Notes under the pieces: model-generated
The model's database searches: none
Seen by the model: the letters and a program-made list of their open reading frames with translations, nothing else
Told to the model about the DNA's origin: nothing
NCBI GenBank assembly: GCA_021775415.1
Contig: JAJFHV010000014.1
Coordinates: forward strand, 62,001-126,000
Length of the DNA stretch: 64,000 nucleotides
Direction of reading: 5' to 3'
DNA from: Hyphomicrobiales bacterium
Lineage (GTDB): Bacteria > Pseudomonadota > Alphaproteobacteria > Rhizobiales > Rhizobiaceae
Part shown: piece after piece, positions 5,524-25,422 of the stretch
How positions within the stretch are numbered: the stretch's first letter is position 1
Layout: every line of letters starts with the position of its first letter
Position numbers and translations under genes: made by a program

Positions 5524-5772
5524 TAAAGATCACTCTCACGACTGAAGAATTTTATTTCATAAACTGTGTTGAGTCTGGTGAAATATCGCTGGTTTTACCC
5601 AAAAGGGCAACACACTCAAGATTGGCTGCGAAAATAAAAACACAACCCAGCCGGATAAATATAACTCATTGAAATAAAACAGTTATCTAGCGCTCGGAAA
5701 AGCCGGTGGATTTGGTCGGGACCATGGAATCGTTTATAACGTTATTGGTAAATTCATGATCAGGAAATTCTC

Positions 5773-9230: not shown

Positions 9231-9344
9231 TTAGCGTAGTTCCGCAAACTGGACTGCTTGTTCTGATTTTTCATTTTCTACTGAACGAACTGTTGCGACA
9301 ATCATCGCGCCAGTCATTGCAAAAGCGATTACGGTGAATATCAT
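9231..9344 (-). CDS. Single-pass membrane microprotein (37 aa)
   Basis: An ORF of 37 codons too short for ordinary gene callers. The peptide starts MIFTVIAFAMTGAMIVATV (a 19-residue hydrophobic helix) and continues with a charged tail, RSVENEKSEQAVQFAELR. An AGGAAA Shine-Dalgarno sequence lies about 8 bp upstream of the ATG at 9344. It abuts the lysE stop exactly and is convergent to it. Its layout (N-terminal membrane helix, polar C-terminus) matches the second micro-ORF 109 bp upstream on the same strand. The function is unknown; such peptides often modulate membrane complexes. Confidence 0.5.
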   Translation of the reverse strand: MIFTVIAFAMTGAMIVATVRSVENEKSEQAVQFAELR

Positions 9345-9452
9345 GATGCTTTTCCTGCTACCTCTTGGATGACACAAACCCTATCAGATGAAGCTTTCCA
9401 ACAATTTTCACGAATTGAGCTAATTTTATAGAATTTTCGTGAAGTGTTGGTC

Positions 9453-9587
9453 TCAATCGGCAAATCGATAAAACTTGTTTTTCAGCTGAGTAGAAAGCTG
9501 TTTGTGGCGACGCTCTGCTTCAATTTCCAAGATTGCGGTGATGCCCAGAACGGTCGTCATCATGAAAGCTGCGATAAGGATAATCAT
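9453..9587 (-). CDS. Single-pass membrane microprotein (44 aa)
   Basis: The peptide starts MIILIAAFMMTTVLGITAIL, a membrane helix, and ends in a strongly charged region (EIEAERRHKQLSTQLKNKF). A good Shine-Dalgarno AGGAG sits 8 bp before the ATG at 9587. With the downstream 37-aa ORF it forms a tandem pair of similar design: Met-Ile start, Met-Thr near residue 10, Glu/Arg/Lys/Gln-rich tail. This supports both as real genes that may have arisen by duplication. No family is recognised. Confidence 0.55.
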   Translation of the reverse strand: MIILIAAFMMTTVLGITAILEIEAERRHKQLSTQLKNKFYRFAD

Positions 9588-9700
9588 CTCGAACACTCCT
9601 GTTTTTGTCTTTTGCTGTCTTAGCAATATTCAAATGAACCGGGCTTGAGGGCGTTGTTCATACTGCGTTCATCATAAATAGGAGGTTTGGGAGGCAAATT

Positions 9701-9799
9701 ATGTGCGAAGATGCACACTACAATTCATGCACCAAATTTGGGTTTGTCACGATTACCGGTTGCAGACTTCAAGTTGAAATGACAAAAGGTGTGCCATGA
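9701..9799 (+). CDS. Possible 32-aa upstream peptide coupled to coaD
   Basis: A 32-codon ORF begins at ATG 9701 behind a strong GGGAGG ribosome-binding site (9689-9694) and ends in a TGA that overlaps the coaD ATG in an ATGA junction (9796-9799). The peptide has three cysteines (residues 2, 10, 21) and no membrane helix. It may be a real small protein or a leader peptide whose translation delivers ribosomes to coaD, which itself has only a modest AAAGGTG signal. No homology is recognised. Confidence 0.4.
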
Positions 9800-10290
9800 A
9801 AAGAACGGCATTCTATTCGGGCTCATTTGACCCAATGACCAATGGTCATCTCGATATACTGAGACAGTGTCTGTCGCTGGCAGACGCGGTTGTAATTGGT
9901 GTTGGAGTTCATCCCGGCAAGAAGCCGATGTTTTCTTTTGAAGAACGCGCTGAATTGATCAACAAATCTGTCAATGACCTGAAAGAGGCGGCTGATGTTG
10001 AAGTCAGTGTGCGTTCTTTTGACAACTTGGTGGTGGATGCGGCGGCAGATGCAGGTGCAACTATCCTCGTGCGCGGTGTTCGTGATGGTAGTGATCTTGA
10101 CTATGAAATGCAGATGGCTGGCATGAACGGAGCAATGGCACCAGGTATAAAAACCGTATTACTGCCTGCCAGTCCTGATGTCCGTCATATTACCGGCACT
10201 CTTGTCCGGCAAATCGCCAGAATGGGGGGCGATGTTTCTTCCTTTGTGCCACCGCCTGTATTGGAAGCGCTCAAAGGCAAAGTAGCCTAA
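9796..10290 (+). CDS. coaD: Phosphopantetheine adenylyltransferase
   Basis: CoaD converts 4'-phosphopantetheine and ATP to dephospho-CoA, the penultimate step of CoA synthesis. The 164-residue protein has [16 protein letters not shown] with the nucleotidyltransferase (T/H)xGH motif at residues ~15-18, [19 protein letters not shown], the [16 protein letters not shown] substrate loop, and the C-terminal [12 protein letters not shown]. Length is typical. It begins the run coaD-ppi-ppi-queA-tgt, which is conserved in Rhizobiales. Confidence 0.97.
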
Positions 10291-10322
10291 ACTCTCAATC
10301 CTATTCTCGAAAGAATTATGCA

Positions 10323-10892
10323 ATGAAAATCCTGTCTCGGTTCATGACTGTCGTCCTATTGTGTGTTGGTCTTGCGGCTTGCAATCAAAGTGACAAGGCA
10401 AGTCCAACGCAAACATCACAAGAATCAAATACGGTTTTGCTGGAACTCAAGGACGGGCAGGTGGAAATCAAGCTTCGCCCGGATCTGGCTCCAAATCACG
10501 TAGCGCAAATCCGCACCCTGACAGAACAGGGGTTTTACGACGGGATTGTTTTTCATCGGGTGATAGATGGGTTTATGGCTCAAAGCGGTGATCCAACCGG
10601 TACTGGCCGTGGCGGTTCAGAGCTTCCAAACATCAAGGCTGAATTCAGCGAAACCCGTTTCACACGCGGCATGCTTGGTATGGCGCGATCACAAAGCCCG
10701 GACAGCGCCAATTCCCAGTTCTTTATCATGCTTGCGGACGGGGATTTCCTGAATGGCAAATATACGGTGTTTGGCGAAGTGACCTCAGGCATGGAGCTGG
10801 TCGACAACATCAAAAAGGGTGACAAGGCCGCAAATGGTGAAGTTACCGAGCCGGACAAAATCATAACAATGCGCCTTGTGGGCACTAACTAA
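10323..10892 (+). CDS. Periplasmic lipoprotein cyclophilin (peptidyl-prolyl isomerase)
   Basis: 189 residues. The N-terminus is a lipoprotein signal (lipobox LAAC, acylated Cys about residue 20), so the enzyme is expected to be membrane-anchored in the periplasm. The cyclophilin core follows: ITY-like YDGIVFHRVIDGFMAQSGDPTGTGRGG with the catalytic Arg, then SQFFIMLADGDFLNGKYTVFGEV. It catalyses cis-trans isomerisation of Xaa-Pro bonds and assists folding. It is 26 bp upstream of a second, cytoplasmic cyclophilin of closely similar sequence, evidently a tandem duplication. Confidence 0.95.
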   Translation: MKILSRFMTVVLLCVGLAACNQSDKASPTQTSQESNTVLLELKDGQVEIKLRPDLAPNHVAQIRTLTEQGFYDGIVFHRVIDGFMAQSGDPTGTGRGGSELPNIKAEFSETRFTRGMLGMARSQSPDSANSQFFIMLADGDFLNGKYTVFGEVTSGMELVDNIKKGDKAANGEVTEPDKIITMRLVGTN

Positions 10893-10918
10893 TCAAACTC
10901 TAACTCTGGAAAATTATT

Positions 10919-11386
10919 ATGAGCAAAGAATCAGACAACACCATCATCATGGAAACCACTCAGGGCAAGGTGGTAATTGAATGCCGCCCGGATCTGGCGC
11001 CTAATCATGTAGCGCAGGTCAAGGCCTTGGCAAGTGAAGGATTTTATGACGGCATCGTCTTTCACCGGGTAATCGAAGGGTTCATGGCACAGGTTGGCTG
11101 CCCCCATGGCACCGGCACCGGCGGCTCATCCAAGCCGGACATCAAGGCCGAATTCAATAGTGAACCACACACACGCGGTGTTTGTTCCATGGCACGCTCG
11201 CAGAATCCGGACTCCGCCAATTCGCAATTTTTCATCTGTTTTGGTGATGCGGCTTTTCTGGATGGCCAGTACACCGCCTGGGGCAAGGTCACCGAAGGCA
11301 TGGAAAACATCGACAAGATCAAACGCGGTGAGCCAGTAAGCGATCCGGATTCGATTGTTTCAATGAAAGTGGCATCCGCCAGCTAA
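10919..11386 (+). CDS. Cytoplasmic cyclophilin (peptidyl-prolyl isomerase)
   Basis: 155 residues without a signal peptide. It shares the active-site stretch FYDGIVFHRVIEGFMAQ and the SANSQFFICFGDAAFLDGQYTAWG region with its upstream neighbour, so the two form a periplasmic/cytoplasmic paralogue pair. It catalyses prolyl isomerisation. ATG at 10919 is preceded by CTGGAAAATTATT, a weak ribosome-binding site. Confidence 0.95.
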   Translation: MSKESDNTIIMETTQGKVVIECRPDLAPNHVAQVKALASEGFYDGIVFHRVIEGFMAQVGCPHGTGTGGSSKPDIKAEFNSEPHTRGVCSMARSQNPDSANSQFFICFGDAAFLDGQYTAWGKVTEGMENIDKIKRGEPVSDPDSIVSMKVASAS

Positions 11387-11428
11387 TACATTTGCTGAGC
11401 CAGATGTTCCGTGGTTCAGTAAATTTAG

Positions 11429-12499
11429 ATGCGCGTTGACCTTTTTGATTTTGAATTACCAGAAGACCGGATCGCCCTGCGTCCGGTAAGCCCCAGGGAT
11501 TCTGCAAAATTGCTCGTCGTTGAAGGTGGCCAGTTAGAGGACAAGTTGGTGAGTGATCTCGCCGACTTGCTTCACCCCGGTGATGCGCTGGTTTTCAACG
11601 ACACCAAAGTTATTCCGGCGCATCTGGACGGCATTCGTGTGCGTGACGAAATGGCCGCGCGAGTGTCTTTTACACTTCATACCAGGCTATCGGACACGAA
11701 CTGGTTGGCGTTTGTGAAGGGTGCAAAGAAACTTGCAGCCGGTGATCGTGTTTGTTTTGGAACCACCAATGAGGCATGTCTTGCAGGAGCGCTCGCTGGC
11801 GAAGTGATGGACAAGCGTGAAGCCGGTGAAGTCGAAATCGCGTTTGAGTTATCCGGATCTGCACTGGATGAAGCACTGGCAAACATCGGTCAAATGCCCC
11901 TGCCGCCATACATAGCCTCAAAGCGAGACACGGATAGTCAGGATACGAACGACTACCAGACTGTCTACGCCCGGGAAGAAGGCGCTGTTGCTGCCCCGAC
12001 TGCAGGATTGCATTTTACACCCGCGCTTTTGGAAAAATTGGGAGAGAGGGGTGTATCAAGCCACTTCGTAACGCTGCACGTTGGGCCAGGCACGTTTTTG
12101 CCGGTGAAGGTGGACGACACGGATACACACGAGATGCATTCAGAATGGGGATGGGTGCCGGACCGGACCGCCGAAGCCCTGAACAAGGTGCGCAACGATG
12201 GTGGCCGGATCATCTGTGTTGGTACGACTTCGTTGCGTTTACTTGAAAGTGCAGCGGAAAAGGATGGCCGCATCATGCCATGGGAAGGTCAAACTGATAT
12301 CTTCATAACCCCTGGTTACGAATTTCGAACAGCAGATATATTGATGACCAATTTTCACCTGCCGAAATCAACATTGTTCATGTTGGTATCTGCTTTTTGC
12401 GGACTTGAATCCATGCAAGGCGCCTATGCCCATGCGATAAAATATCACTACCGGTTTTATTCCTATGGTGATGCCAGCCTGTTATATCGCGCCTCATGA
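11429..12499 (+). CDS. queA: S-adenosylmethionine:tRNA ribosyltransferase-isomerase
   Basis: QueA transfers the ribosyl moiety of SAM to preQ1 in tRNA to give epoxyqueuosine. The 356-residue protein starts [19 protein letters not shown], has [12 protein letters not shown], the [10 protein letters not shown] motif, [10 protein letters not shown], and the C-terminal [16 protein letters not shown], all QueA signatures. Length is normal. Its stop overlaps the tgt start by 4 bp, matching the consecutive steps in queuosine synthesis. Confidence 0.97.
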
Positions 12500-13642: not shown

Positions 13643-13933
13643 ATGATATCACCGTATGTCGTAAACTGGATTGCGCTGATTGTGCTTGTTGTGGCAACTG
13701 CGTTTGAACACTACTGGGTATGGGGGGTGGTGTTTCTTTTTTGGGCTGTTGGTTCCTGTTACACGCGTGAGGTGTTTCTCCTGTTTCCGATTGAACGGGA
13801 TAAAACACCGGTTCTTTACTGGCTTGTCTGCGTATTTTGGGCAGGATTTGGACTATGGTATCTGTTTACAGACATCCTCTGGCGAATAGGCATCTACAGC
13901 GTTCTGGGGTTTGATCTATACGGAGGCACTTGA
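13643..13933 (+). CDS. Small integral membrane protein, unknown
   Basis: 96 residues from ATG 13643, with three likely membrane helices (NWIALIVLVVATAFEHYW, VVFLFWAVGSCYT, LYWLVCVFWAGFGLWYLF) and many Trp/Tyr. No family is recognised with confidence. It starts 13 bp after tgt and ends one base before the likely start of the Rieske oxygenase gene, so it could be a membrane partner of that enzyme or only an operon neighbour. Confidence 0.65.
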   Translation: MISPYVVNWIALIVLVVATAFEHYWVWGVVFLFWAVGSCYTREVFLLFPIERDKTPVLYWLVCVFWAGFGLWYLFTDILWRIGIYSVLGFDLYGGT

Positions 13934-13934
13934 T

Positions 13935-15083
13935 TTGCCAAAGCAACTTCTTCCCAGGGAGGCGTATACGTCTGCCGAATGGTTCAGCAGGGAGCAGGAA
14001 AATCTGTTTTCCAAAACCTGGTCTTTTATCGGACTTGCATCTGAAATTTCCAAACCCGGAGACTTTGTAACCGGTAAAGCCGGTCACTATCCCGTTGCGG
14101 TAGTCCAAAATTCCGATGGAGAACTACGTGCCTATCACAATTTGTGCCGCCATCGCGGTACCGAGTTGCTTGAAGGCCAGGGCAACACGGGAAAGACCCT
14201 GGTTTGCCCTTATCATCGATGGACCTATGGATTGAACGGGGAATTGCGGGGACTGCCCAACAAAGCCGAATGCTTCCCCGACATTAATCGCAAGGAATGG
14301 TCGTTGAAGGAAGCCTCGATCGGTGTCTTCAAGGGCATGATGTTTGTCAATCCGGATCCCAAGCAATCCTTTGATGACTGGATTGGCCCGTTAGCGGGCG
14401 CAGAATGGCCGCACGACATTGAAGATGCCTCTCTCGTTGCTGGAGAAGAGTTTGTTTACAGGTTGAAGTGCAACTGGAAGGTTTTCTTTGAAAATGCGAT
14501 TGACGGTTATCATCTTGCCTATCTGCATGAAAATACGCTTGGTGGACCACTTCCAGGCCTGAACGAATGGGAAAGCCACGGTCAAAATCTGGCATGGTAT
14601 TCCACTGAGCGGGATAGTGTTCGAAATCGCATTCCAAAGTTTGTTGAAGAGCAGGCCAGCAAATATTCAATGCTAACAATCAAAGGTGCAGAAGAGCCTG
14701 GCTATGGCGGGGTTTACATGCTGTTTCCAACTACCATCGTTACGCCAAGTCCGTGGTCGTTGACCCTTTCCCGAATGGAGCCGGTTGATCCAGATACCAC
14801 CTTGCTTCGAGCGAGAACCTGGATCACCAAATCATGGATGAACTATGCTGACAGGCTTAAGGATACCCCAGGTTACAACCCGCAAAGTGGAATGATTGAA
14901 TCGGATCATTGGAAGGTCCACCCGCTGGAGACCGGTGACTTTCAAACTGAAGATGTTTGGGTTTGCGAAAAAATGCAACGATCGCTCCACTCACCGGTCT
15001 ATTCGGTCGGACCGTATTCCAAGGGTAGCGGTGGTGAGGCAATGCTTGAGGAGTTCCAGAAGATGGTGCTGGGCTATCTTTAA
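13935..15083 (+). CDS. Rieske [2Fe-2S] aromatic-ring/betaine-type oxygenase, alpha subunit
   Basis: Alpha subunit of a Rieske non-haem iron oxygenase, which inserts oxygen into or demethylates its substrate. It has the Rieske ligands C-x-H (CRHRG) and C-x2-H (CPYHRWTYG) in the first ~110 residues and the mononuclear iron region NWKVFFENAIDGYHLAYLHENT. The length (~382 aa) fits the family. I chose TTG 13935 because a perfect GGAGG (13922-13926) lies 8 bp upstream, whereas the TTG at 13911 has no ribosome-binding site and overlaps the upstream gene. The substrate is unknown. No reductase gene is adjacent. Confidence 0.88.
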   Translation: MPKQLLPREAYTSAEWFSREQENLFSKTWSFIGLASEISKPGDFVTGKAGHYPVAVVQNSDGELRAYHNLCRHRGTELLEGQGNTGKTLVCPYHRWTYGLNGELRGLPNKAECFPDINRKEWSLKEASIGVFKGMMFVNPDPKQSFDDWIGPLAGAEWPHDIEDASLVAGEEFVYRLKCNWKVFFENAIDGYHLAYLHENTLGGPLPGLNEWESHGQNLAWYSTERDSVRNRIPKFVEEQASKYSMLTIKGAEEPGYGGVYMLFPTTIVTPSPWSLTLSRMEPVDPDTTLLRARTWITKSWMNYADRLKDTPGYNPQSGMIESDHWKVHPLETGDFQTEDVWVCEKMQRSLHSPVYSVGPYSKGSGGEAMLEEFQKMVLGYL

Positions 15084-15597: not shown

Positions 15598-16638
15598 TCA
15601 ATTGCTTTCTTCATGGATCATTTGCATAGCCATGCGGCCCAGGATGGGCACAGCTTTGCCATAGGCTTTGGCTTTTTCAGGGTTGGATGCATTACCATCT
15701 ACCGATCGGCGATAGACCCCCTGCAAAATTGCAGCGATACGGAAAAACGAGAATGCCAAATAGAAGAACCAGTGCCCGATTTCCCCAATATTGCGTCGGG
15801 CACAATAGTTTTTCACATATGTCTGCTCGTCTGGAATGCCGAGCGCATCCCTGTCTACGCCGGCCAGACCTCTAAACTCACCTTCATGGGGCAACCGCAA
15901 CTGCATGCATTGATAAGCAAGATCCGCCAGTGGATGACCGACGGTTGAAAGCTCCCAATCAAGAATACCCAGGATTTTTGGTTTCTCCGTATCAAACACC
16001 ATATTGTCCAGCCGATAGTCGCCATGAACCAGCGATAGCACACCATCATCCGGTGGCATGTGGTTCTCAAGCCATTTAATCAATCGATGGATATCGTCAC
16101 AGCGATCCAGTTCGCTGGCCACATATTGTTTTGTCCAGCGTGAAAGCTGTCGCTCAAAATAATTGCCGGGAACGCCAAAATCAGAAAGACCGATGGTTGC
16201 GGGATCGATTGAATGAAGGGCAGCGAGTGCCTCGTTCATTGCATCGTAGATTTCGCCACGCTGCTTACTATCATCATTCAGTTCAAGAAGCGCTGGATCC
16301 CAAAATATCCGCCCTTCCAGATATTCCATGACGAAAAACATACGCCCGATAATGGAATCTTCCTCTGACAAGTAGAGCATTCTGGGGACAGGCACTTTAG
16401 AACCGGAAAGTGCCCGCATTACACGAAATTCCCGGTCAACTTGATGCGCAGACTTTAGCAGTTCACCAAGCGGTTTTGCTCGCAGAACGAATTTTTTCTC
16501 TTGAGTCTCAAGCAGATATGTCGGGTTGGATTGTCCGCCGTCAAATTTTTTAATGGATATCGGTGGGCTAAACCCGTCAATGACGGTTCCCAGAAATTCA
16601 CCTATCAGGTGTGTATCAAGCGGGTTGGATTCACTCAT
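15598..16638 (-). CDS. APH/ACAD10-type phosphotransferase family protein
   Basis: 346 residues with a protein-kinase-like fold: FDGGQSNPTYLLET glycine loop, VLRAKP with the ATP-binding lysine, catalytic HGDYRLDN and metal-binding ILDWELSTVGHPLADL. Homologues fused to or beside acyl-CoA dehydrogenases (ACAD10/11) phosphorylate 4-hydroxyacyl-CoAs so that they can be dehydrated. It lies at the end of a long minus-strand catabolic run with acyl-CoA-type enzymes, so a role on a hydroxyacyl-CoA is a reasonable inference rather than aminoglycoside resistance. Confidence 0.85.
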   Translation of the reverse strand: MSESNPLDTHLIGEFLGTVIDGFSPPISIKKFDGGQSNPTYLLETQEKKFVLRAKPLGELLKSAHQVDREFRVMRALSGSKVPVPRMLYLSEEDSIIGRMFFVMEYLEGRIFWDPALLELNDDSKQRGEIYDAMNEALAALHSIDPATIGLSDFGVPGNYFERQLSRWTKQYVASELDRCDDIHRLIKWLENHMPPDDGVLSLVHGDYRLDNMVFDTEKPKILGILDWELSTVGHPLADLAYQCMQLRLPHEGEFRGLAGVDRDALGIPDEQTYVKNYCARRNIGEIGHWFFYLAFSFFRIAAILQGVYRRSVDGNASNPEKAKAYGKAVPILGRMAMQMIHEESN

Positions 16639-16667
16639 TGGCTAGCCGAATGTAGCGGTGCCATGGG

Positions 16668-16913
16668 TCATCCTCCTGCCAAAAGCGGCAACACATGTAC
16701 GGTGCTGTCTGGCTTGATTTCCGCAAACCAATTGTCACGGAAAATTTCTCCATCAATGGCAACAGATACACCCTTGTTCAGGCGCGGTTTTAAACCCGGG
16801 TAAAGTTCAACAAGTTCATCCAGCAGGGCGCGAACGTTTTTGGCATCGCTATCGAGCTCGTTCGCACCGTTGGCAAGCGCCTTCAGGCCACCCCACAGGA
16901 TAATTCGGGCCAT
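16668..16913 (-). CDS. MoaD/ThiS-like ubiquitin-fold sulfur carrier
   Basis: 81 residues with the beta-grasp layout and the essential C-terminal di-glycine (VLPLLAGG). MoaD donates sulfur as a C-terminal thiocarboxylate to molybdopterin precursor Z. It starts 15 bp after the stop of the molybdenum hydroxylase large subunit, so it may provide extra cofactor sulfur for that enzyme. It differs from house-keeping MoaD in the RGG-like KVRALLDELVELYPGLKPRL segment, typical of 'MoaD/ThiS family' accessory copies. Confidence 0.85.
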   Translation of the reverse strand: MARIILWGGLKALANGANELDSDAKNVRALLDELVELYPGLKPRLNKGVSVAIDGEIFRDNWFAEIKPDSTVHVLPLLAGG

Positions 16914-16928
16914 TACACCTCAATCAGT

Positions 16929-19181
16929 CTACTTGGCTTCGTCTATCGCCTTGAGCACTTTTGGAGGCGACATCGGGATATCAGTCATTCGGATACCGGC
17001 AGCAGCCGCAAGCGCATTTGCAACGGTTGCCAATGGTGGCACGATCGATGTTTCCCCAACCCCACGTACACCATAGGGATGTCCAGGATTTGGCACTTCC
17101 AGAATAACTGCATCAATCATCGGTAAATCCGAAGCAACAGGGATGCGATAATCAAGGAAACCCGGGTTTTGTAACCGTCCTTCGTTATCGTAAATGTATT
17201 CTTCGTTCAACGCCCAGCCAATGCCCTGTACTGCGCCACCTTGAAACTGGCCTTCGACATAACTGGGGTGAATCGCCTTGCCTGCGTCCTGGAACACCGT
17301 GTAGCGAACAACTTCCGCACGTCCGGTTTCCGGATCAACTTCAACATCTGCAAGGTGGGTTGAGAAACTCACACCAGCACCATCTGCGTTGATTTCATGA
17401 TGCCCTGCGATCGGACCACCCGTGCTGCTGGCATTTGCTGCAATTTCCACAAGTGACATAGGCTTGAAGTCACCGGCGTTGGATCCGGCTGGTTTGGCAT
17501 GTCCGTCTTCCCAGACGACTGCATCTTCAGGAATGCCCCAGGTCTTTGCGGCACGTGCACACATAACTTTGCAGGCATTTCGTGATGCCTCGATTGCCGC
17601 AATTCCGCTTGCAAAGGTAACACGGCTTCCGTCGGTGACGTCATTGTAGCCGAGCGAGGCCGTATCAGCGATGATAGCTCTTACCTTTTCGTATTCGACA
17701 CCCATTTCCTCAGCTACCATCAGGCTGAGTGAGGCGCGTGAACCACCAATATCCGGTGTACCCACGGAAAGCCCGACTGTGCCATCCGCATTTACCGCCA
17801 ATGAAACACTGGTTTGGCCACCAAAATTAAACCAGAAACCACAGGCAACACCGCGCCCCTGATTTGGACCGAGTGGCGCGCTGTAGTGCGGATGGTTTTT
17901 TGCGGTCTCAAGAGTAAGGGCCAAACCGATATCGCTGAAAGTCGGACCGTAAGAGGATTTGCTGCCCGCAGATGAGGCGTTCTTCAATCGAAACTCGATC
18001 GGATCCATGCCAACTTTCTTGGCCAGCTCATCAACAACGCTTTCAATGGCAAAAGCTGCCATTGGTGCTCCAGGCGCGCGGTAGGCAACCTGTTTTGGCC
18101 GGTTGGTAACAATGTCATAGCCAACCGTTTTGACGTTTTCCAAATCATAACAGGCAAAAGCACTCATTGCGCCAAATTCGACAGGCGAACCCGGATATGC
18201 GCCACCCTGGTAGCGCAAATTGGCGAAACCAGCTGTAATTCTGCCGTCCTTCTTCACTCCGATTTTAACGTCGACGCTTGAGCTGGCGGTTGGGCCACTT
18301 GCCCGGAACACTTCATTCCGCGACATCACAATTTTTACCGGGCGATTGGATTTTTTCGAGAGTGCAAGCGCAACCGGTTCGATGAACACAGTCGTCTTTC
18401 CGCCGAACCCGCCGCCGATTTCAGATGCGGTAACCCGCAATTGGGATTCTTCAATCTTGAGCAAGTCAGCGCAAAGCTCACGGACATAGTAGTGTCCTTG
18501 GGTGCAGCACCAAAGTTCGCCGCGTCCGTCGCTGCCCAGTGTGGCAAGACAGGCATGCGGTTCGATATACCCCTGGTGGGCAGCCTCCGTCTTGAAGCTC
18601 CGCTCGATGATGATGTCGGCTTCCTTGAAGCCTTTGTCCACATCGCCATGCCCGAACTCGTGGCGGTGGGCAATGTTTGTCGGTTTGGTGGGCGCTGGAT
18701 CAACACCATCCGGCACCATGTCCTCGTGCAAGATAGGCGCGTCTGGTGCCAACGCTGCATCGACATCGGTAACGCCTTTCAGGACTTCATACTCGACCTT
18801 GATCAACTTCAGTGCTTTGCGGGCAGCAGCTTCACTTGACGCTGCAATCGCAGCCACCGTATGGCCATCATAAAGTGCCTTTTTGCCAGCCATGACATTG
18901 TCCATGACATCGGGATTGTCAAAATCTGATCCAAAATCTGCACGGGTTACAACTGCGTGTACACCTTCTGCTGCTTCAGCTTTGGAGGTGTCAATTGACT
19001 TGATCAGGGCATGGGCATGGGGGCTGCGCAAAATGACACCGTGGAGCATGCCGGGTGCAGAAACATCTGCTCCAAAACGGGCTTTGCCTGTAACCTTGTC
19101 CAAACCATCCGGTCTTAGGGGACGCGTACCAATACTTTTGAACTTGCGGGCGTCTGGGCTCACTTCTGATTGATAATTCAT
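16929..19181 (-). CDS. Molybdenum hydroxylase large subunit (xanthine dehydrogenase family)
   Basis: 750 residues. This subunit holds the molybdopterin-cytosine-dinucleotide centre of a xanthine dehydrogenase-type heterotrimer that hydroxylates a C-H bond using water. Motifs: IGTRPLRPDGLDKVTGKARFG start, GGGFGGKT, AYRAPGAPMAAFAIE, and the catalytic glutamate in VRGVGETSIVPP. The active-site loop is AYRAPG, not the AYxCSFR of true CO dehydrogenase, so CO oxidation is excluded. It is last of three translationally coupled subunit genes (4-bp overlap). The substrate may be an N-heterocycle or an aldehyde. Confidence 0.95.
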   Translation of the reverse strand: MNYQSEVSPDARKFKSIGTRPLRPDGLDKVTGKARFGADVSAPGMLHGVILRSPHAHALIKSIDTSKAEAAEGVHAVVTRADFGSDFDNPDVMDNVMAGKKALYDGHTVAAIAASSEAAARKALKLIKVEYEVLKGVTDVDAALAPDAPILHEDMVPDGVDPAPTKPTNIAHRHEFGHGDVDKGFKEADIIIERSFKTEAAHQGYIEPHACLATLGSDGRGELWCCTQGHYYVRELCADLLKIEESQLRVTASEIGGGFGGKTTVFIEPVALALSKKSNRPVKIVMSRNEVFRASGPTASSSVDVKIGVKKDGRITAGFANLRYQGGAYPGSPVEFGAMSAFACYDLENVKTVGYDIVTNRPKQVAYRAPGAPMAAFAIESVVDELAKKVGMDPIEFRLKNASSAGSKSSYGPTFSDIGLALTLETAKNHPHYSAPLGPNQGRGVACGFWFNFGGQTSVSLAVNADGTVGLSVGTPDIGGSRASLSLMVAEEMGVEYEKVRAIIADTASLGYNDVTDGSRVTFASGIAAIEASRNACKVMCARAAKTWGIPEDAVVWEDGHAKPAGSNAGDFKPMSLVEIAANASSTGGPIAGHHEINADGAGVSFSTHLADVEVDPETGRAEVVRYTVFQDAGKAIHPSYVEGQFQGGAVQGIGWALNEEYIYDNEGRLQNPGFLDYRIPVASDLPMIDAVILEVPNPGHPYGVRGVGETSIVPPLATVANALAAAAGIRMTDIPMSPPKVLKAIDEAK

Positions 19182-19660
19182 GATTTAGCCGCCTTCATTT
19201 CTTCTGCGGTATCCATGACCGCACGGATGATCTTGTCGTAACCTGTGCAACGGCAGAGGTTTCCGGCAAGCCAATATCGAATTTCGGTCTCACTTGGGTC
19301 GGGGTTCTTTTCAAGTAGTGCTTTTGCTGCGACCAGAAAACCTGGAGTACAGATGCCACACTGAAGGGCAGCGTGTTCGAGAAACTTCGATTGTAACGGA
19401 TGCAGGTTTTCACCTTCGGCCATTCCTTCAATTGTCGCAATTTCACAGCCTTGGGCTTCTGCACCCAATGCCAGGCATGAACACACAAGACGGCCATCAA
19501 TTGTAATGCTGCAGGCACCGCAATCGCCCGAGCCACAACCTTCTTTACTGCCGGTTAGTCCCAGTCGGTCGCGTAATACCGTAAGCAGGGTTTCATCAGG
19601 CTCACAGAGAAACTCAACTGCGTCACCGTTTACAGTTGTTGAAACATGAATCTGGCTCAT
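19178..19660 (-). CDS. Molybdenum hydroxylase small subunit, two [2Fe-2S] clusters
   Basis: 160 residues. N-terminal plant-type ferredoxin domain with CGSGDCGACSI plus a later Cys, then an all-helical domain with CGICTPGFL and CRCTGYDKI binding the second cluster. It passes electrons from the Mo centre to FAD. Overlaps both flanking subunit genes by 4 bp, so subunits are made in a fixed ratio. Confidence 0.96.
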   Translation of the reverse strand: MSQIHVSTTVNGDAVEFLCEPDETLLTVLRDRLGLTGSKEGCGSGDCGACSITIDGRLVCSCLALGAEAQGCEIATIEGMAEGENLHPLQSKFLEHAALQCGICTPGFLVAAKALLEKNPDPSETEIRYWLAGNLCRCTGYDKIIRAVMDTAEEMKAAKS

Positions 19661-20520
19661 TTTTTTCCCTTTGCACGATCAGCAGCAATGGTAGCTGCAC
19701 GCTTTGCCAGCACACCAGAAACTTTGGTTCTGAATTCTACTGTACCGCGTTTGTCATTGATTGGAGTTGCAGCAGCCGATGCGGCAGCGGCGAGGTTGTC
19801 GAGCGTTTTGTCGTCAATTTTATTTCCGATCAGGGCCTTTGCCGCTTCTTCAACCAACAGTACCCGGGCAGCGACTGCTCCAAGTGAGACCCGCGCATCA
19901 GTGCACACATCATTTTCGTCAAGCGTCAGGCTAACACCGGCGCCAACAACTGCGATGTCCATCTCTGTACGCGGAATAAACCGCAGGTAAGCATCTGATG
20001 ATCTATCCGGCCGCGCCGGCAGAAATACGGATTCAACAAACTCGCCAGCAGCAAGTGAGGTTTTGCCCGGACCTGTTGCGATCTCGGAGACCGGCACATC
20101 GCGAGAAGCTTTCGGGCCGATAACCCGCGCAACAGCATTCGCGGCAACCAAAGCGGGAACACTGTCAGCCGCAGGGGAGGCGTTACACAAATTGCCAACC
20201 AACGTTGCCCTGCCTTGAACCTGCGTAGAACCGATCAATTCAACACCTTCAACAACACCTGGCCACAGGGCGCAAACACCTGCATGCTCGCCAAGCTCGG
20301 CGCCACTCACGGCTGCGCCGATCCGAAAGCCACCATCTTCTTCGCTAATCTGCTTAAGCAAGGGGATGCGTTTGATATCAACAATCAAATCCGGCTCGAT
20401 CATGTCGCCGCTCATCTGAATAATCAAATCCGTACCGCCAGCAAGAACGCGGGCTACGCCCTTTTCGCCTGCCAACAAAGTGACAGCGGCATCAATGGTT
20501 TCGGGTGCCTCGTATCTCAT
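19657..20520 (-). CDS. Molybdenum hydroxylase medium subunit (FAD)
   Basis: 287 residues of the CO-dehydrogenase flavoprotein C-terminal type. FAD-binding motifs are VLAGGTDLIIQM (near residue 25-36) and ATLVGNLCNASPAAD (~105-119). Located first in the medium-small-large order, each with 4-bp overlaps. ATG at 20520 gives the family N-terminus MRYEAPETIDAAVTLL. Confidence 0.95.
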   Translation of the reverse strand: MRYEAPETIDAAVTLLAGEKGVARVLAGGTDLIIQMSGDMIEPDLIVDIKRIPLLKQISEEDGGFRIGAAVSGAELGEHAGVCALWPGVVEGVELIGSTQVQGRATLVGNLCNASPAADSVPALVAANAVARVIGPKASRDVPVSEIATGPGKTSLAAGEFVESVFLPARPDRSSDAYLRFIPRTEMDIAVVGAGVSLTLDENDVCTDARVSLGAVAARVLLVEEAAKALIGNKIDDKTLDNLAAAASAAATPINDKRGTVEFRTKVSGVLAKRAATIAADRAKGKK

Positions 20521-20579
20521 TAAAAAATCCTATCTGGAGTCCCGGTTGTATCAATCTCGCGGGATGTGTGCAGTGTCAT

Positions 20580-22676
20580 TTAACAGTCTTGTTGGACTTG
20601 GATCAACACATCAATTGCACATACTTCGTCTGATAGAATTAATAGCGGATTGATTTCGATTTCCGCAATTTCCTTGCGCTGTTTTGCGACGTAATTGGCA
20701 AGGTGTTGCAAGGCTTGGACAATCTTTGTTTTGTTGGCAGATGGTTTACCCCGGTAACCGTCCAGCAGTTTGCATATTTTAAGGCACTCCAGGGATTCCA
20801 GAATGGCGTAATCACTTGCAGGTAGCAGAATGGTATTTGCGTCTTCAACCAACTCAACCAGTGTACCGCCACTCGCCAATGTCATTGCAAGCCCGAATTG
20901 CGGGTCCGAGCGGATGTTGACCATCAGTTCCGCAACAACATCGTCGATCATCGGTTCAATCAGATATTTATCCGTGACCGCATCTTTGTCGTAATCCATT
21001 ACATTGCGATGCATTTCATCAATTGCCTGAGTAACCGCTTCGCTGGAGAGCAGGTTTAACCGGACTGCCCCTGCCTCGGATTTGTGGGGAAGATTTGCAC
21101 TCACCATTTTAAGTGAAAGTGGGTAACCGATTTCATCTGCCGTCAGTGCAGCGTTGTCGCGATCAATCACCCTGCCATCGGGTATTGGCAATCCGGCTGA
21201 CTTCAGTATTTCCTTGCCGCTCGCTTCATCCAACACGGTCAATTTCTCATGCACTGCAGTGGTAACCAACGCCTCAGGTTTGTCATTCAGTATTTTGGCT
21301 CGGCGTTCTCCGTACCAGACGGCTGCTCGAATCGCCTCGAGTGCCTCGTGGATTCCTTGTGAAGGTGTCACCCCCTTACCCACCAAATAGGTGCGCGCTT
21401 CTTCATCCAGGTTTTCCGGCAGTGTTGAACATACCGCGGCTGGCAGTTTGGCATCCCTGGTTGCCTTCACGAATGATTTTGAATCATTGAAATAACACCA
21501 TCTTGATTCATCCAGCCCCGGCAAGGGGTAGTCCTGCAATATGATTGCCGCGTCGTAACCATCACCACAAGCGGTCTCGAATACTGGTGGAACTTTTTCA
21601 GGATCGCCCCAAATGGGCGTCGTGTAATCAAGTGGATTGGATACCGTTGCGATATCAGGCAACAATTCTGTCAATTTCATTGTCGTAGATTCTCGTGGTT
21701 GCGGAAATTCGAGGCCTATCTTTTCTCCATGATCCGCAAGCATCGTTGCGCCACCACCGGAGCAGGTAAAGCCGATCACGCGATTGCCCTTTGGAATGCC
21801 GGAAACGCAAATAAATTTAAGTGTTTCAAGCATCTGTGCCGGATTGGTGACCCGAATGATCCCCAATCGCTCAAACAAGGCCTGGTAGAGATCATCGGAA
21901 CCGGAAAGTGAGCCGGTATGGCTCACTGTCAGGGATTGACCAACCTTGGAAGAACCGGTCTTTAGGGCAACAATTGGTTTGCCCAGACTTAGCGCCTTTA
22001 ACGCGACCTCACAAAAACGCTGAACATCGCGCAGGCCTTCAATGTGAATGCCAATGGCGCGCACTTCTTTCTGTTCGCATAGAACATCAACAAAGTCCTC
22101 AAGCTGCAGGACGGCCTGATTGCCGGCAGAAATCATGTGGGTGAGGGGCAGGGAACGTTGGCTCATGGTCAAATCTGAAGACAACATGCCGCTTTGGGTG
22201 ATTATTGCGGCCCCAAAACCCGGGCATGAACCTCCGTGGGCAAACGGCCACAGCGCTACGTGATCCAGATAATTGATCATGCCGTAGCAATTGGGTCCGA
22301 TGAGCGCGAGGTCTCCAGCAGCTTTGATGAGAGCCTGCTGTGCCGCTTCTCCGTTTTCACCCGCTTCACCAAATCCTGCCGTATAACAGACAACTCCGCC
22401 GGCTCCAGTGCTTTTCAGTTGGCCTATCACATCAATTGCGCTGGCGCCTGGAATGGCCAGAAATGAACCGTCCGGTCGCTCCGGAAGTTCTGTGACGTCT
22501 GAATAGCATCGGAAACCACCGAGCGTTTCGCGTTTTGGATTTACAGGCCAGATCGCACCGGAATAACCGGATCTCTTCAACTCGTTGATCACGACTTCCG
22601 CATCGCGACCACCAATAATTGCAACGTGTTTCGGTTTCAACAGGCGCCGCAGATTCTGCCTTTGACCGGGTGTCAT
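20580..22676 (-). CDS. ADP-forming acyl-CoA synthetase (acetate-CoA ligase family)
   Basis: 698 residues containing fused alpha and beta parts of the NDP-forming acyl-CoA synthetase superfamily: an N-terminal CoA-binding Rossmann domain (LKPKHVAIIGGRDAEVV... GPNCYGMINYLD), a flavodoxin-like ligase-CoA domain with IGFTCSGGGATMLADHGE, and a C-terminal ATP-grasp domain (YPLSLKMVSANLPHKSEAGAV, EINPLLIL). It activates a carboxylic acid with CoA at the cost of ATP to ADP. Placed before CaiD-, carnitine dehydrogenase- and BKACE-like genes, it may replace the AMP-forming CaiC as betaine:CoA ligase. That substrate is inferred. Confidence 0.9.
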   Translation of the reverse strand: MTPGQRQNLRRLLKPKHVAIIGGRDAEVVINELKRSGYSGAIWPVNPKRETLGGFRCYSDVTELPERPDGSFLAIPGASAIDVIGQLKSTGAGGVVCYTAGFGEAGENGEAAQQALIKAAGDLALIGPNCYGMINYLDHVALWPFAHGGSCPGFGAAIITQSGMLSSDLTMSQRSLPLTHMISAGNQAVLQLEDFVDVLCEQKEVRAIGIHIEGLRDVQRFCEVALKALSLGKPIVALKTGSSKVGQSLTVSHTGSLSGSDDLYQALFERLGIIRVTNPAQMLETLKFICVSGIPKGNRVIGFTCSGGGATMLADHGEKIGLEFPQPRESTTMKLTELLPDIATVSNPLDYTTPIWGDPEKVPPVFETACGDGYDAAIILQDYPLPGLDESRWCYFNDSKSFVKATRDAKLPAAVCSTLPENLDEEARTYLVGKGVTPSQGIHEALEAIRAAVWYGERRAKILNDKPEALVTTAVHEKLTVLDEASGKEILKSAGLPIPDGRVIDRDNAALTADEIGYPLSLKMVSANLPHKSEAGAVRLNLLSSEAVTQAIDEMHRNVMDYDKDAVTDKYLIEPMIDDVVAELMVNIRSDPQFGLAMTLASGGTLVELVEDANTILLPASDYAILESLECLKICKLLDGYRGKPSANKTKIVQALQHLANYVAKQRKEIAEIEINPLLILSDEVCAIDVLIQVQQDC

Positions 22677-22685
22677 GCTGGTCCT

Positions 22686-23573
22686 CTACTGTGTGCCTCT
22701 CAAGTGCAGTTTCTTGCGTGCCTCTGCTGGCGTAAGAACCTTAGCCCCAAGTCGCTCGATGATCTCAACGGCCCGTTCAACCAGTTGACCATTGGAAGCA
22801 AGGACACCACGATCCAGATAGATGTTGTCCTCCAGTCCAACCCGTACATTTCCGCCCATGACAACGGCAGCGGCTGCCATCGGCATTTGCATTCGGGAAA
22901 TGCCAAACCCTGCCCAGCTGGCATTTGTCGGCAATTCATCTTTCATGACTTTCATGGTGTCGACACTTTGGTCCGCTCCCCAGGGAATGCCAAGGCAAAT
23001 CTGAAACATTGGCGGTTCTGCAATCAATCCTTCCGCAATCATCTGTTTGGCGAAGCGGATATGGCCCAGTTCAAAGACTTCGAGTTCCGGCTTTACACCC
23101 CATTCCTTCGTCAACCCGGCCATTTTGCGCAGCGTGGGGGGAGTGGAGATGTAAATTTCATCACCATCGCCAAAATTCAAAGTGCCACAATCAAGGCTGC
23201 AGATTTCCGGTAGCAGACCTTGCACGTGAGCAAGGCGCTCAATCGGGCCGATCATGTCGGTTCCGGGGCCGGGCATTGCAGGGTTATCTTTGTCCGGCAC
23301 CCAGTCGCCGCCCATACCCGCGGTAAGATTGATAATGACGTCGGTATCGCTGTCACGGATCCGGTCAACAACTTCCTTGAAGAGTTCCGGATCGCGTGAT
23401 CCTTTCCCGGTTTCTGGATCACGAACATGGCAATGGGCAATGGCAGCACCTGCTTTGGCAGATTCGATTGCAGCTTCCGCCACCTGCTTTGGTGTTACAG
23501 GAACGCCTGGATGGCGTTCGGTTGTAGCCCCAGCACCTGTGACCGCACAGGTCACGACAACTTCATAGTTCAC
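22686..23573 (-). CDS. BKACE family beta-keto acid cleavage enzyme (dehydrocarnitine cleavage likely)
   Basis: 295 residues of the 3-keto-5-aminohexanoate cleavage family (DUF849), zinc-dependent enzymes that condense a beta-keto acid with acetyl-CoA and split it to acetoacetate and a new acyl-CoA. The zinc motif [15 protein letters not shown] is at about residues 44-58, the strand [10 protein letters not shown] follows, and ELGHIRFA and [11 protein letters not shown] complete the site. The direct neighbour is a carnitine 3-dehydrogenase gene, and BKACE members in that setting cleave 3-dehydrocarnitine to betainyl-CoA and acetoacetate. I infer that role here. Confidence 0.9.
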
Positions 23574-23659
23574 GGGTCAAATCCTCCTGTTTGCCATTTT
23601 TCTAATGGCCAAATTATTGTATTATTGTCGATTTTTCGACAAAGGTATGAACCTTGTAT

Positions 23660-24616
23660 TCAGGCAGTTGTAGTGCGGGCAGCACGTGTACCTTTTAAAA
23701 CCGCCACAATGCCTCGGTCGCGCTCCGCAGCCAGATCGGTGAAGTGGCGGCTTCCCGCAATTTCATTGCAGCCATCAACCATTCTATCGCGGAGTTCTTT
23801 CGTAAGTTCTGGTGCCTCAAGTCGGGTCCACGGCAATTTGAGCGCGGGGCCAAACTGGTCAAGGTTTGTTGCCATCCCACCTTCGCCACAAGCAATGTGG
23901 AAAGCCATGCACTGGCCAAACATCGCCATGCGTGGAGCAGGGCCATTTATCAACGCTGTGTCGATCTGTTCCGCAGTTGCTTCACCATTGGCAACCATGT
24001 GCAATGCTTCGCGCCACAGCGCTTCTTGAAGCCTTGTGGCGACAAAGCCGGGGATTTCCTTGTTCATAACCAGTGGTGCCTTGCCTGCAATTTCATAAAA
24101 CGCATCGGCCCATTGCACGGCTTCCGGCGAGCTTTTTTTGCCTCCAACAATTTCTACCAACGGTAACAGGTAGGGCGGGTTAAATGGATGGCCGACAACG
24201 GTACGTTCTGAAGCGGAGCAGCGCTGTTGTATCTCTGTCATAGTCAACCCGGACGTCGAGGATGAAATCACCACATTGTCCGGAACCAATTCGGCTAGCT
24301 GTTCATACAACGCCTGCTTCAACTCCAGAATTTCCGGTGCGCTTTCCTGGATGAAGTGGGTATCTTTGACAGCTTCGGCCAGATCAGTTGTGATTGTCAG
24401 ACGATTACGTGATGCACCATCTGCCAGACCTAATTCTTCCAGACTGATCCATGCGGTGTCGATGATGTCACGAAACGAATCTTCCTCATTTTCGTCATGC
24501 AGATAGCTGATCACGTCATAACCACGCGCAAGAAAATGTGCGGTCCAACCGCCGCCAATCGGTCCGCCGCCAATACTGGTAATCCGGGACACTTTTGAGG
24601 GTTCAATAAGGTTCAT
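23660..24616 (-). CDS. lcdH: L-carnitine 3-dehydrogenase
   Basis: 318 residues of the 3-hydroxyacyl-CoA dehydrogenase superfamily. The NAD-binding loop reads IGGGPIGGGWTAHFLARGYDV, then SSTSGLTMTEIQQ, the conserved VVGHPFNPPYLLPLVEIVGG and the helical C-terminal domain. The 320-residue length and this HPFNP context fit carnitine dehydrogenases, which oxidise L-carnitine to 3-dehydrocarnitine. The next gene downstream (BKACE) would use that product. It starts 2 bp after the upstream CaiD-like gene. Confidence 0.82.
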   Translation of the reverse strand: MNLIEPSKVSRITSIGGGPIGGGWTAHFLARGYDVISYLHDENEEDSFRDIIDTAWISLEELGLADGASRNRLTITTDLAEAVKDTHFIQESAPEILELKQALYEQLAELVPDNVVISSSTSGLTMTEIQQRCSASERTVVGHPFNPPYLLPLVEIVGGKKSSPEAVQWADAFYEIAGKAPLVMNKEIPGFVATRLQEALWREALHMVANGEATAEQIDTALINGPAPRMAMFGQCMAFHIACGEGGMATNLDQFGPALKLPWTRLEAPELTKELRDRMVDGCNEIAGSRHFTDLAAERDRGIVAVLKGTRAARTTTA

Positions 24617-24618
24617 GA

Positions 24619-25422
24619 TTATTTGCCTTTAAATACCGGTGCGCGTTTTTCGACAAAAGCCTGCACACCTTCTTTTGCATCTTCAGATTTCAGCATCGCG
24701 CGATATGTGGGTAGATCCCCGGTGCGCATAGTCGCAAATGCATTTTCAAGCGGAACGCACTCAATTGATCGAAGCAACTCCTTGACGGTTTGTAGCGCCA
24801 GGGGAGCCGATTGTGCCAGTTGATCAGCCCAGACGCGCGCTTCGCTCATTAAATCGTCATACGGAACGATTTTGTTGATCAGTCCGTAGCGTGCGGCGTC
24901 TTCCGCAGTCATGCGCCGTCCCAGCAAAAACATTTCCATTGCGATGTTGTGGGGAATGCGGCGGGGAAGGCGCTGAATGGCGCCGGCATCCGGCACCATG
25001 CCAAGCGGCATTTCAGGGAGTCCGAACTCCACATGATCTGCTGCAATCAACAGATCACAGCCAAGTGCGAGTTCAAATCCGCCACCAATCACCAATCCGT
25101 TGAGTGCTGCGATAACCGGTTTGTTCAAATTCCAATTCTCGGTCAGACCAGCAAATCCACCATCGCCATAATCAGCAGTTTCCCACCAGTTATCGAGTTG
25201 GGTTTCACCAGAATTCAATGCTTTCAAATCCCATCCAGCTGAAAATATCTTGCTTCCCTCTGCCGTCAGGATACCAACACGAAGTTCCGGATCATCGCGT
25301 AATTCTGCAAATGCCGCACCAAGCTGCTGGCTCATTTCGATGTCAATTGCATTGACTTTTGGCTTGTTCAGTTTGACTTCAAGCACGTGCCCGTTTCGGG
25401 TAACTTCTACAGATTTGGTCAA
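24619..25422 (-). CDS. caiD: Crotonobetainyl-CoA hydratase (CaiD-like enoyl-CoA hydratase)
   Basis: 267 residues of the crotonase fold, closely similar along its length to E. coli CaiD: SVEVTRNGHVLEVKLNKPK start, FSAGWDLKAL oxyanion loop, GGFAGLTENWNLNKPVIAAL, GGGFELALGCDLLIAA, GLPEMPLGMVPDAG. CaiD hydrates crotonobetainyl-CoA to carnitinyl-CoA. I chose TTG 25422, giving MTKSVEV, because GGAG lies 6-7 bp before it; an upstream ATG at 25443 lacks such a site. It is the first gene of the proposed ten-gene minus-strand operon that ends at 15598. Confidence 0.82.
   Translation of the reverse strand: MTKSVEVTRNGHVLEVKLNKPKVNAIDIEMSQQLGAAFAELRDDPELRVGILTAEGSKIFSAGWDLKALNSGETQLDNWWETADYGDGGFAGLTENWNLNKPVIAALNGLVIGGGFELALGCDLLIAADHVEFGLPEMPLGMVPDAGAIQRLPRRIPHNIAMEMFLLGRRMTAEDAARYGLINKIVPYDDLMSEARVWADQLAQSAPLALQTVKELLRSIECVPLENAFATMRTGDLPTYRAMLKSEDAKEGVQAFVEKRAPVFKGK

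What the first reader, a model, noticed from the sequence alone, without database searches (positions are those of the whole stretch)
15598..25422. Carnitine-type operon joined to a molybdenum hydroxylase and an ADP-forming CoA ligase
Ten minus-strand genes are packed with mostly 4-15 bp gaps or overlaps: CaiD, carnitine dehydrogenase, BKACE, ADP-forming ligase, XDH-type trimer, MoaD, phosphotransferase. Classical carnitine routes have CaiC (AMP-forming) and no molybdenum enzyme. The set may degrade a modified carnitine or another gamma-betaine whose ring or aldehyde is first hydroxylated.
Basis: partly seen in the sequence, partly recalled or inferred. Interest (0 to 1): 0.68.

Follow-up and report, generated by a model that had tools for sequence, protein, structure and literature searches.

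The report
Second carnitine-like operon with molybdenum cassette
A relative of root-nodule bacteria carries, besides an ordinary-looking set of carnitine-degrading genes, a second, diverged set joined to a molybdenum enzyme; it probably breaks down a carnitine-like compound, but the compound and the job of the molybdenum enzyme are unknown.

Summary
The gene block is real: nine minus-strand genes, not ten. Eight (MoaD-like to CaiD-like, 16668-25422) belong together. The phosphotransferase does not: it lies beside tgt without the other eight in two sister genomes.

The carnitine part is a second, paralogous set ("cluster 2"). The same genome has a standard gamma-butyrobetaine/carnitine cluster, whose dehydrogenase passes NCBI's carnitine cut-off; the window's does not. 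The ADP-forming ligase is not unusual: standard clusters read here have it too.

Ligase searches gave 24 cluster-2 loci (17 with all four core genes). An acyl-CoA dehydrogenase lies beside the ligase in 20 of 24; a monooxygenase/aldehyde dehydrogenase/RidA module is near in 14 of 24.

The odd part is the molybdenum cassette. It is joined to such genes in 1 of 90 fetched cassette loci, a sister species. That species and the window both lack the acyl-CoA dehydrogenase, but two other genomes lack it there with no adjacent cassette, so replacement is not shown.

Most likely: catabolism of a carnitine-like onium acid, with the Mo enzyme oxidising an aldehyde or heterocyclic precursor. Substrate and Mo role are inferred.

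The parts
24619..25422 (-). CaiD-like enoyl/onium-acyl-CoA hydratase (CaiD2, 267 aa, TTG start)
   Evidence: Pfam ECH_1; best NCBIfam crotonobetainyl-CoA hydratase, 316 bits, below cut-off 500; 62-89% to cluster-2 relatives, 45% to R. etli CaiD
23660..24616 (-). Carnitine-dehydrogenase-like 3-hydroxyacid dehydrogenase (CDH2, 318 aa, no thioesterase domain)
   Evidence: Best NCBIfam L-carnitine dehydrogenase, 314 bits, below cut-off 414; 37% to R. etli carnitine 3-dehydrogenase over 287 aa
22686..23573 (-). Beta-keto acid cleavage enzyme (BKACE2, 295 aa, GTG start)
   Evidence: Pfam BKACE, 336 bits; 94% to G009, 84% to P. marina, 53% to R. etli BKACE
20580..22676 (-). ADP-forming acyl-CoA ligase (LIG2, 698 aa)
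   Evidence: Pfam CoA_binding_2, Succ_CoA_lig, ATP-grasp_5; no AMP-binding domain match; SHTGSL at 252 and PHKSEAGAV at 530
19657..20520 (-). FAD subunit of the molybdenum enzyme (287 aa)
   Evidence: Pfam FAD_binding_5 and CO_deh_flav_C; best stretch against 4-hydroxybenzoyl-CoA reductase beta covers only residues 3-114
19178..19660 (-). 2x[2Fe-2S] subunit of the molybdenum enzyme (160 aa)
   Evidence: Pfam Fer2 and Fer2_2; eight cysteines 42,47,50,62,101,104,136,138 in the usual motifs (assignment to clusters recalled)
16929..19181 (-). Molybdenum-binding subunit, xanthine oxidase family (750 aa)
   Evidence: Pfam Ald_Xan_dh_C, MoCoBD_1, MoCoBD_2; Glu710 in GVRGVGE, GGGFGGK at 256
16668..16913 (-). 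MoaD/ThiS-like protein (81 aa, ends in GG)
   Evidence: Pfam ThiS 33.7 bits; a MoaD match occurs in 84 of 90 loci of this cassette
15598..16638 (-). APH-family phosphotransferase; adjacent, but judged NOT part of the unit
   Evidence: Pfam APH; 64-65% homologues beside DUF4864 and tgt in G001 and G010 without the other genes; no match in the 90 cassette loci

Best explanation
The eight genes at 16668-25422 are a catabolic unit made of two modules. Module one is a second, paralogous carnitine-type pathway. The ADP-forming ligase makes the CoA ester of an onium acid such as a crotonobetaine or gamma-butyrobetaine analogue. CaiD2 hydrates the enoyl-CoA. The ligase, run in reverse, frees the 3-hydroxy acid and regains ATP. 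CDH2 oxidises it to the 3-keto acid. BKACE2 transfers its acetyl end to acetyl-CoA, giving acetoacetate and a shortened betaine-type CoA ester, which the ligase can again release with ATP gain because no thioesterase domain is present. Saturated substrates would need the acyl-CoA dehydrogenase of cluster 1 in trans. Module two is a self-contained xanthine-oxidase-family Mo hydroxylase with its own MoaD-like sulfur carrier, which most likely oxidises an aldehyde or N-heterocyclic precursor of the same compound class. Shown: gene content, order, conserved motifs, paralogy to cluster 1, joining in two species. Inferred: every reaction, the substrate, co-transcription and the Mo step.
For: Families and motifs. 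Cluster 1 in the same genome, with a dehydrogenase at 724 bits over the carnitine 3-dehydrogenase cut-off 592. Both clusters also in G009 and G054. All 7 cluster-2 genomes searched for acyl-CoA dehydrogenase hold a cluster-1-like one (49-54%; its surroundings were read only in G000, G009 and G054). Cluster-2 proteins form one side of a branch for BKACE (support 88), CDH (100) and ligase (100). 24 cluster-2 loci, 17 with all four core genes. An acetoacetate-CoA ligase gene lies in the Aminobacter cluster, as expected for a BKACE product. Aldehyde dehydrogenase, RidA or luciferase-type monooxygenase near or inside cluster 2 in 14 of 24 loci; G000 and G009 hold this module at a separate locus. 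Mo enzyme plus BKACE in one pathway has a precedent in deoxyribose oxidation (PMC6365646, passages). The join is kept in two species with 81% identical Mo subunits.
Against: The cassette is not joined to CDH, BKACE or ligase genes in 89 of 90 fetched loci (several are cut short by contig ends), so it has a life of its own and may be a passenger. The join rests on one evolutionary event (window and G009 are sisters), and flanking genes on both sides are kept too, so plain synteny may explain it. The genome already holds, elsewhere, an aldehyde dehydrogenase 80% identical to the one linked to cluster 2 in P. marina, which makes a Mo aldehyde oxidase partly redundant. The CaiD tree does not separate the two clusters perfectly (2 changes), and the CaiD cut-off test does not separate them at all. 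No substrate or expression evidence exists.
Confidence: 0.45

Rival explanations
1. Passenger: the Mo cassette is a self-contained module with its own function (for example general aldehyde or heterocycle oxidation) that landed behind the ligase gene in the ancestor of two species; it takes no part in the carnitine-like pathway.
For: No CDH, BKACE or ligase match beside the cassette in 89 of 90 fetched loci; G584 and G759 carry cluster 2 and close Mo subunits (69%; 69% and 67%) on other contigs; two different cassette lineages within the window's genus.
Against: Same-strand join with 59 and 33 bp gaps kept in both species, while other neighbours (phosphotransferase, Rieske or DUF1185 gene) differ between them.
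Confidence: 0.35
2. Replacement: the Mo enzyme has taken over the dehydrogenation of the saturated betaine-CoA from the missing acyl-CoA dehydrogenase (ACAD2).
For: ACAD2 lies next to the ligase in 20 of 24 cluster-2 loci and is missing in both loci with the joined cassette; the best acyl-CoA dehydrogenases of G000 and G009 are those of cluster 1, 50% and 49%; the Mo subunit's best solved relative is an acyl-CoA enzyme, 4-hydroxybenzoyl-CoA reductase.
Confidence: 0.07
3. Plain redundancy: cluster 2 is a second copy of the L-carnitine/gamma-butyrobetaine pathway for the same substrates, kept for different regulation.
For: Same enzyme families step for step; CaiD of both clusters score alike against the crotonobetainyl-CoA hydratase model (316-320 against 319-320 bits); a regulator like GbdR (232 bits, cut-off 480) in P. 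marina and its relatives beside many cluster-2 loci.
Against: Diverged enzymes with fixed differences (14 BKACE positions between 4 cluster-1 and 7 cluster-2 rows); CDH2 fails the carnitine cut-offs while CDH1 passes one; associated monooxygenase/aldehyde module in 14 of 24 loci.
Confidence: 0.13

Closest known systems
Alphaproteobacterial gamma-butyrobetaine/carnitine cluster (R. etli p42c; own genome C4)
   Same: BKACE, carnitine dehydrogenase, ADP-forming ligase and CaiD families in one cluster
   Different: Window copy is a separate paralogous clade, lacks the C-terminal (thioesterase) part of the dehydrogenase, lacks the acyl-CoA dehydrogenase, and carries the Mo cassette
Cluster 2 of Parasedimentitalea marina pW43B and Aminobacter sp. 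SR38 pSR3
   Same: CaiD 81-82%, CDH 72-74%, BKACE 76-84%, ligase 54-57% identical
   Different: They have ACAD2, an ABC transporter, a GbdR-like regulator and the monooxygenase/aldehyde dehydrogenase/RidA module in place; no Mo-subunit match on either plasmid
Oxidative deoxyribose pathway of Pseudomonas simiae (PMC6365646, passages read)
   Different: Its Mo enzyme is an IorAB-like two-subunit type with a cytochrome c; the dehydrogenase is an SDR; no CoA ligase or hydratase among the eight catabolic genes listed for P. simiae
4-Hydroxybenzoyl-CoA reductase
   Same: Best solved relative of the Mo subunit (1rm6, 320 bits)
   Different: 454 bits against cut-off 994; the FAD subunit is shorter and its best stretch covers only residues 3-114

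Membership tests
L-carnitine dehydrogenase (NCBIfam PRK07066 / PRK07531) | score above curated cut-off | tested here: not met
   314.4 < 414 and 257.5 < 592; the own genome's cluster-1 protein scores 724.3 > 592
L-carnitine dehydrogenase (NCBIfam PRK07066 / PRK07531) | oxidises L-carnitine | not testable with these tools
   needs enzyme assay
Crotonobetainyl-CoA hydratase CaiD (NCBIfam PRK03580) | score above curated cut-off | tested here: not met
   316.3 < 500; but cluster-1 and R. etli CaiD also fail (318.7, 319.5 < 500), so the test does not discriminate
BKACE (PF05853) | family domain over the whole protein | tested here: met
   336.4 bits, cut-off 24.8, residues 5-291
Gamma-butyrobetaine degradation cluster | acyl-CoA dehydrogenase beside the ligase | tested here: not met
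   no hit in the window cluster; nearest in the genome is the cluster-1 enzyme, 50%
ADP-forming acyl-CoA ligase | CoA-binding, ligase and ATP-grasp domains | tested here: met
   phosphohistidine-type motif SHTGSL present (meaning of the motif recalled)
CaiC (AMP-forming ligase) | AMP-binding domain | tested here: not met
   no such Pfam match in the 698-aa ligase at E 0.001
Xanthine oxidase family Mo hydroxylase | Mo, FAD and 2x[2Fe-2S] subunits with catalytic Glu and eight Cys | tested here: met
   a conserved glutamate activates the Mo centre (PMC10420851, passages); that Glu710 is this residue rests on alignment
4-Hydroxybenzoyl-CoA reductase | score above curated cut-off; extra [4Fe-4S] insert in beta subunit | tested here: not met
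   453.7 < 994.55; FAD subunit best stretch 3-114, 287 aa against 324 (identity of the insert recalled)
Aerobic CO dehydrogenase | AYRCSFR active-site loop | tested here: not met
   window has AYRAPGAP; chains 1n5w and 1ffu show AYRCSFR, 8uem AYACSFR (the loop's role recalled)
Xanthine dehydrogenase (XdhA) | score above curated cut-off | tested here: not met
   425.5 < 780 and 401.1 < 916

The most novel reading that the evidence does not exclude
Cluster 2 is an undescribed catabolic pathway for a second class of onium acid (for instance a longer betaine, a sulfonium analogue of carnitine, or a betaine released from an N-heterocycle by the linked luciferase-type monooxygenase/aldehyde dehydrogenase/RidA module), and in the window's genus a xanthine-oxidase-family Mo enzyme carries out one of its steps.
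Probability: 0.3. Interest if true: 0.65.

Novelty: new variant of a known kind. Interest (0 to 1): 0.42.

Why it matters
Quaternary ammonium and sulfonium compounds are important carbon and nitrogen sources for bacteria (general knowledge). A second carnitine-type gene set, found in 24 loci and present along with a standard one in the three genomes where both were read, points to a betaine-like substrate that annotation hides under carnitine names. If the molybdenum enzyme belongs to it, that adds a metal-dependent step that I did not see described for carnitine-type routes in the listings searched.

Tried and rejected
Rejected: ten-gene operon (nine genes; phosphotransferase is backbone). 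Rejected: ligase type as the surprise. Weakened: Mo enzyme replaces ACAD2. My ORF picking first hid ACAD2 in G500, G584 and G759; a protein search found it beside the ligase in all three, which looked like perfect exclusivity until two genomes without ACAD2 and without an adjacent Mo cassette turned up (L176, L179). Considered as support and set aside: Mo cassette beside a paralogous DUF1185/hydrolase/flavin reductase/monooxygenase/aldehyde dehydrogenase module in Nitratireductor (L113); one such case in 90 loci is about what random placement could give (my rough estimate, not computed by a tool). Neighbour clustering around the cassette found no partner shared beyond close relatives, apart from generic families. 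Substrate guesses from trigonelline- or homarine-type pathways are recalled leads; paper searches gave nothing decisive. A genome paper that holds both carnitine and xanthine dehydrogenase words (PMC2764856, passages) lists them as genes at distant loci. No structure prediction or fold search was run. No RNA family matched the window at Rfam's gathering scores.

Rows dropped or not followed: of the class-wide ligase hits five of 40-45% were not counted as cluster 2 after reading their surroundings (L155-L159). Of the 480 plasmid records matched by the ligase only the best two (57%, 54%) were counted; the other listed ones are 39% or less, and two of them were read. Of 877 plasmid records matched by CDH2 only the same two plasmids reach 60%; the rest were not followed. 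A class-wide BKACE search found matches in 15 of 240 genomes; apart from the window and G500 these matches (59-69%) were not followed, so relatives of cluster 2 with other ligases may exist. In one search three partial Mo-subunit rows were left out; the BKACE comparison left out L154, set L155 apart and cut the L145 row to its last 305 residues. The Mo-subunit reference used for alignment and PDB searches lacked its first Met.

Full report
Observation. The window lies on contig C6 of a 3.46 Mb genome. At 15598-25422 there are nine co-directional minus-strand genes. Pfam and NCBIfam confirm the named families: CaiD-like hydratase, carnitine-dehydrogenase-like enzyme, BKACE, ADP-forming ligase, FAD, Fe-S and Mo subunits, a MoaD/ThiS-like protein and an APH phosphotransferase. 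Gaps are 2, 86, 9, 59, -4, -4, 15 and 29 bp. No catalytic decay is visible: Glu710 and the GGGFGGK loop in the Mo subunit, eight cysteines in the Fe-S subunit, the ligase motifs and the terminal GG of the MoaD-like protein are present (roles largely recalled).

Limits of the unit. In G009, a second species of the genus, the same eight genes stand in the same order between the tgt side and the lipid A (LAB_N) side, without the phosphotransferase. I read the tgt surroundings of five other genus genomes. In G001 and G010 the phosphotransferase (64-65%) and the DUF4864 gene lie beside tgt with none of the eight genes; G004, G005 and G006 show neither phosphotransferase nor the eight genes in the stretches read. 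The phosphotransferase is therefore taken as backbone, and the unit as 16668-25422.

The carnitine part is a second set that has diverged. On contig C4 the same genome has a regulator, BKACE, a 474-aa carnitine-dehydrogenase protein of the fused (thioesterase) length, acyl-CoA dehydrogenase, ADP-forming ligase and CaiD (L142). That dehydrogenase scores 724 bits against the carnitine 3-dehydrogenase cut-off of 592; the window's scores 257.5 against that model and 314 against the L-carnitine dehydrogenase cut-off of 414. [quoted passage not shown] that it is of this fused type is my inference. R. etli plasmid p42c has the same set, and Ruegeria sp. THAF33 has acyl-CoA dehydrogenase, ligase and CaiD together. 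So an ADP-forming ligase is not a departure in this class. G009 and G054 also hold both clusters, though the ligase of G009's cluster 1 is only 31-32% identical to the others. All seven cluster-2 genomes searched for it have a cluster-1-like acyl-CoA dehydrogenase of 49-54% identity.

Trees of 13-15 rows put cluster-2 and cluster-1 proteins on opposite sides of one branch for BKACE (support 88), CDH (100) and ligase (100); CaiD needs two changes. Fourteen BKACE positions are fixed differently between four cluster-1 and seven cluster-2 rows. Against a clean split of function, CaiD of both clusters scores alike, below the cut-off, on the crotonobetainyl-CoA hydratase model.

How cluster 2 looks elsewhere. 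Ligase searches covered 61 relatives, 394 family, 385 class and 397 order genomes, at different E-value limits and partly overlapping, and the plasmid collection. I count 24 loci including the window; 17 have CaiD, CDH, BKACE and ligase, and in the other seven one to three of the other three genes were not found in the fetched stretch, some of which end at a contig end. In 20 of 24 an acyl-CoA dehydrogenase (ACAD2) sits directly beside the ligase; it is missing in the window, G009, G888 and G815. In 14 of 24 an aldehyde dehydrogenase (70% or more to that of P. marina), RidA (70% or more) or a luciferase-type monooxygenase (58% or more) lies in the fetched stretch, in varying gene orders and partly inside the cluster. 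In G000 and G009 a module with these genes (DUF1185, acyl-CoA dehydrogenase, CaiB-type transferase, flavin reductase, hydrolase, RidA, aldehyde dehydrogenase, GbdR-like regulator, monooxygenase; families scanned in the G000 copy) is a separate locus. An acetoacetate-CoA ligase gene in the Aminobacter cluster fits release of acetoacetate by BKACE.

The molybdenum cassette. The Mo subunit passes no NCBIfam cut-off; the best is 4-hydroxybenzoyl-CoA reductase, 454 of 994 bits. Best solved relative: 1rm6, of the same name. The FAD subunit lacks full-length similarity to that reductase's beta subunit, and the loop is AYRAPGAP rather than the CO dehydrogenase loop. I fetched 90 loci: 10 from relatives and the best 80 of 589 encoding stretches, itself a capped list, in named genomes. 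A MoaD match is present in 84 of 90; CDH, BKACE and ligase matches occur in one, G009. No neighbour recurs beyond close relatives except generic families such as ABC-transporter ATPases and aldehyde dehydrogenases. So the four genes are a self-contained cassette, and among these loci it is joined to cluster 2 only in the window and G009, which are sisters in the Mo tree (support 100) and apart from the cassette of other genus members.

What the Mo enzyme may do. Replacement of ACAD2 is tempting, since both joined loci lack it. Against it: G888 and G815 lack ACAD2 at the cluster without an adjacent cassette (the rest of those genomes was not searched), and G584 and G759 have ACAD2 and close Mo subunits on other contigs. 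An upstream oxidation of an aldehyde or N-heterocycle fits the known chemistry of the family (recalled; xanthine oxidase mechanism passages in PMC10420851) and has a parallel: in Pseudomonas simiae a Mo-dependent dehydrogenase acts upstream of the 3-hydroxy acid that is then oxidised and, it is proposed, cleaved by a BKACE (PMC6365646, passages). A passenger role is nearly as likely.

Mechanism proposed. Activation by the ligase, hydration by CaiD2, release of the hydroxy acid with ATP gain, oxidation by CDH2, acetyl transfer by BKACE2, release of the shortened betaine by the ligase. Each step follows from the family and is inferred. With no thioesterase domain on CDH2, the ligase is the obvious candidate for CoA release. 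The substrate is unknown; longer betaines, sulfonium analogues or products of N-heterocycle cleavage are guesses.

Novelty. In the search listings I saw no paper joining carnitine-type genes to a xanthine-oxidase-family enzyme (one candidate opened, names such genes at distant loci). Most subscription papers, among them the original BKACE family study (recalled, not seen), are not in that library. The enzyme families are known; the recurrent second cluster and the joined cassette make this a new variant of a known kind.

Noticed in passing
window 13911-15083 (+): Rieske oxygenase alpha-subunit-like gene (PF00355, PF00848; distant match to glycine betaine monooxygenase, 126.9 of 670 bits) between tgt and the DUF4864 gene; G009 has an AA_synth/DUF1185 gene in this slot, a family also found in the module linked to cluster 2.
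   Followed up: partly
window 20580-22676: The ligase diverges much faster than its neighbours: 65% to G009 against 94% for BKACE, 89% for CaiD and 83% for CDH.
   Followed up: no
L176 and L179 (G888, G815): A second absence of the acyl-CoA dehydrogenase from cluster 2, here with the luciferase-type monooxygenase next to CDH/CaiD and no Mo cassette in the stretch.
   Followed up: partly
L162 (G009 contig C22): A second, paralogous monooxygenase/aldehyde dehydrogenase/DUF1185/flavin reductase module in G009.
   Followed up: no
L113 (Nitratireductor MAG), 3480-12456: Mo cassette directly downstream of a DUF1185-hydrolase-flavin reductase-monooxygenase-aldehyde dehydrogenase module.
   Followed up: partly
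L143 (G009 cluster 1), 5081-7183: The ligase of G009's standard cluster is only 31-32% identical to the other ligases, so ligases seem to be swapped in these clusters.
   Followed up: no
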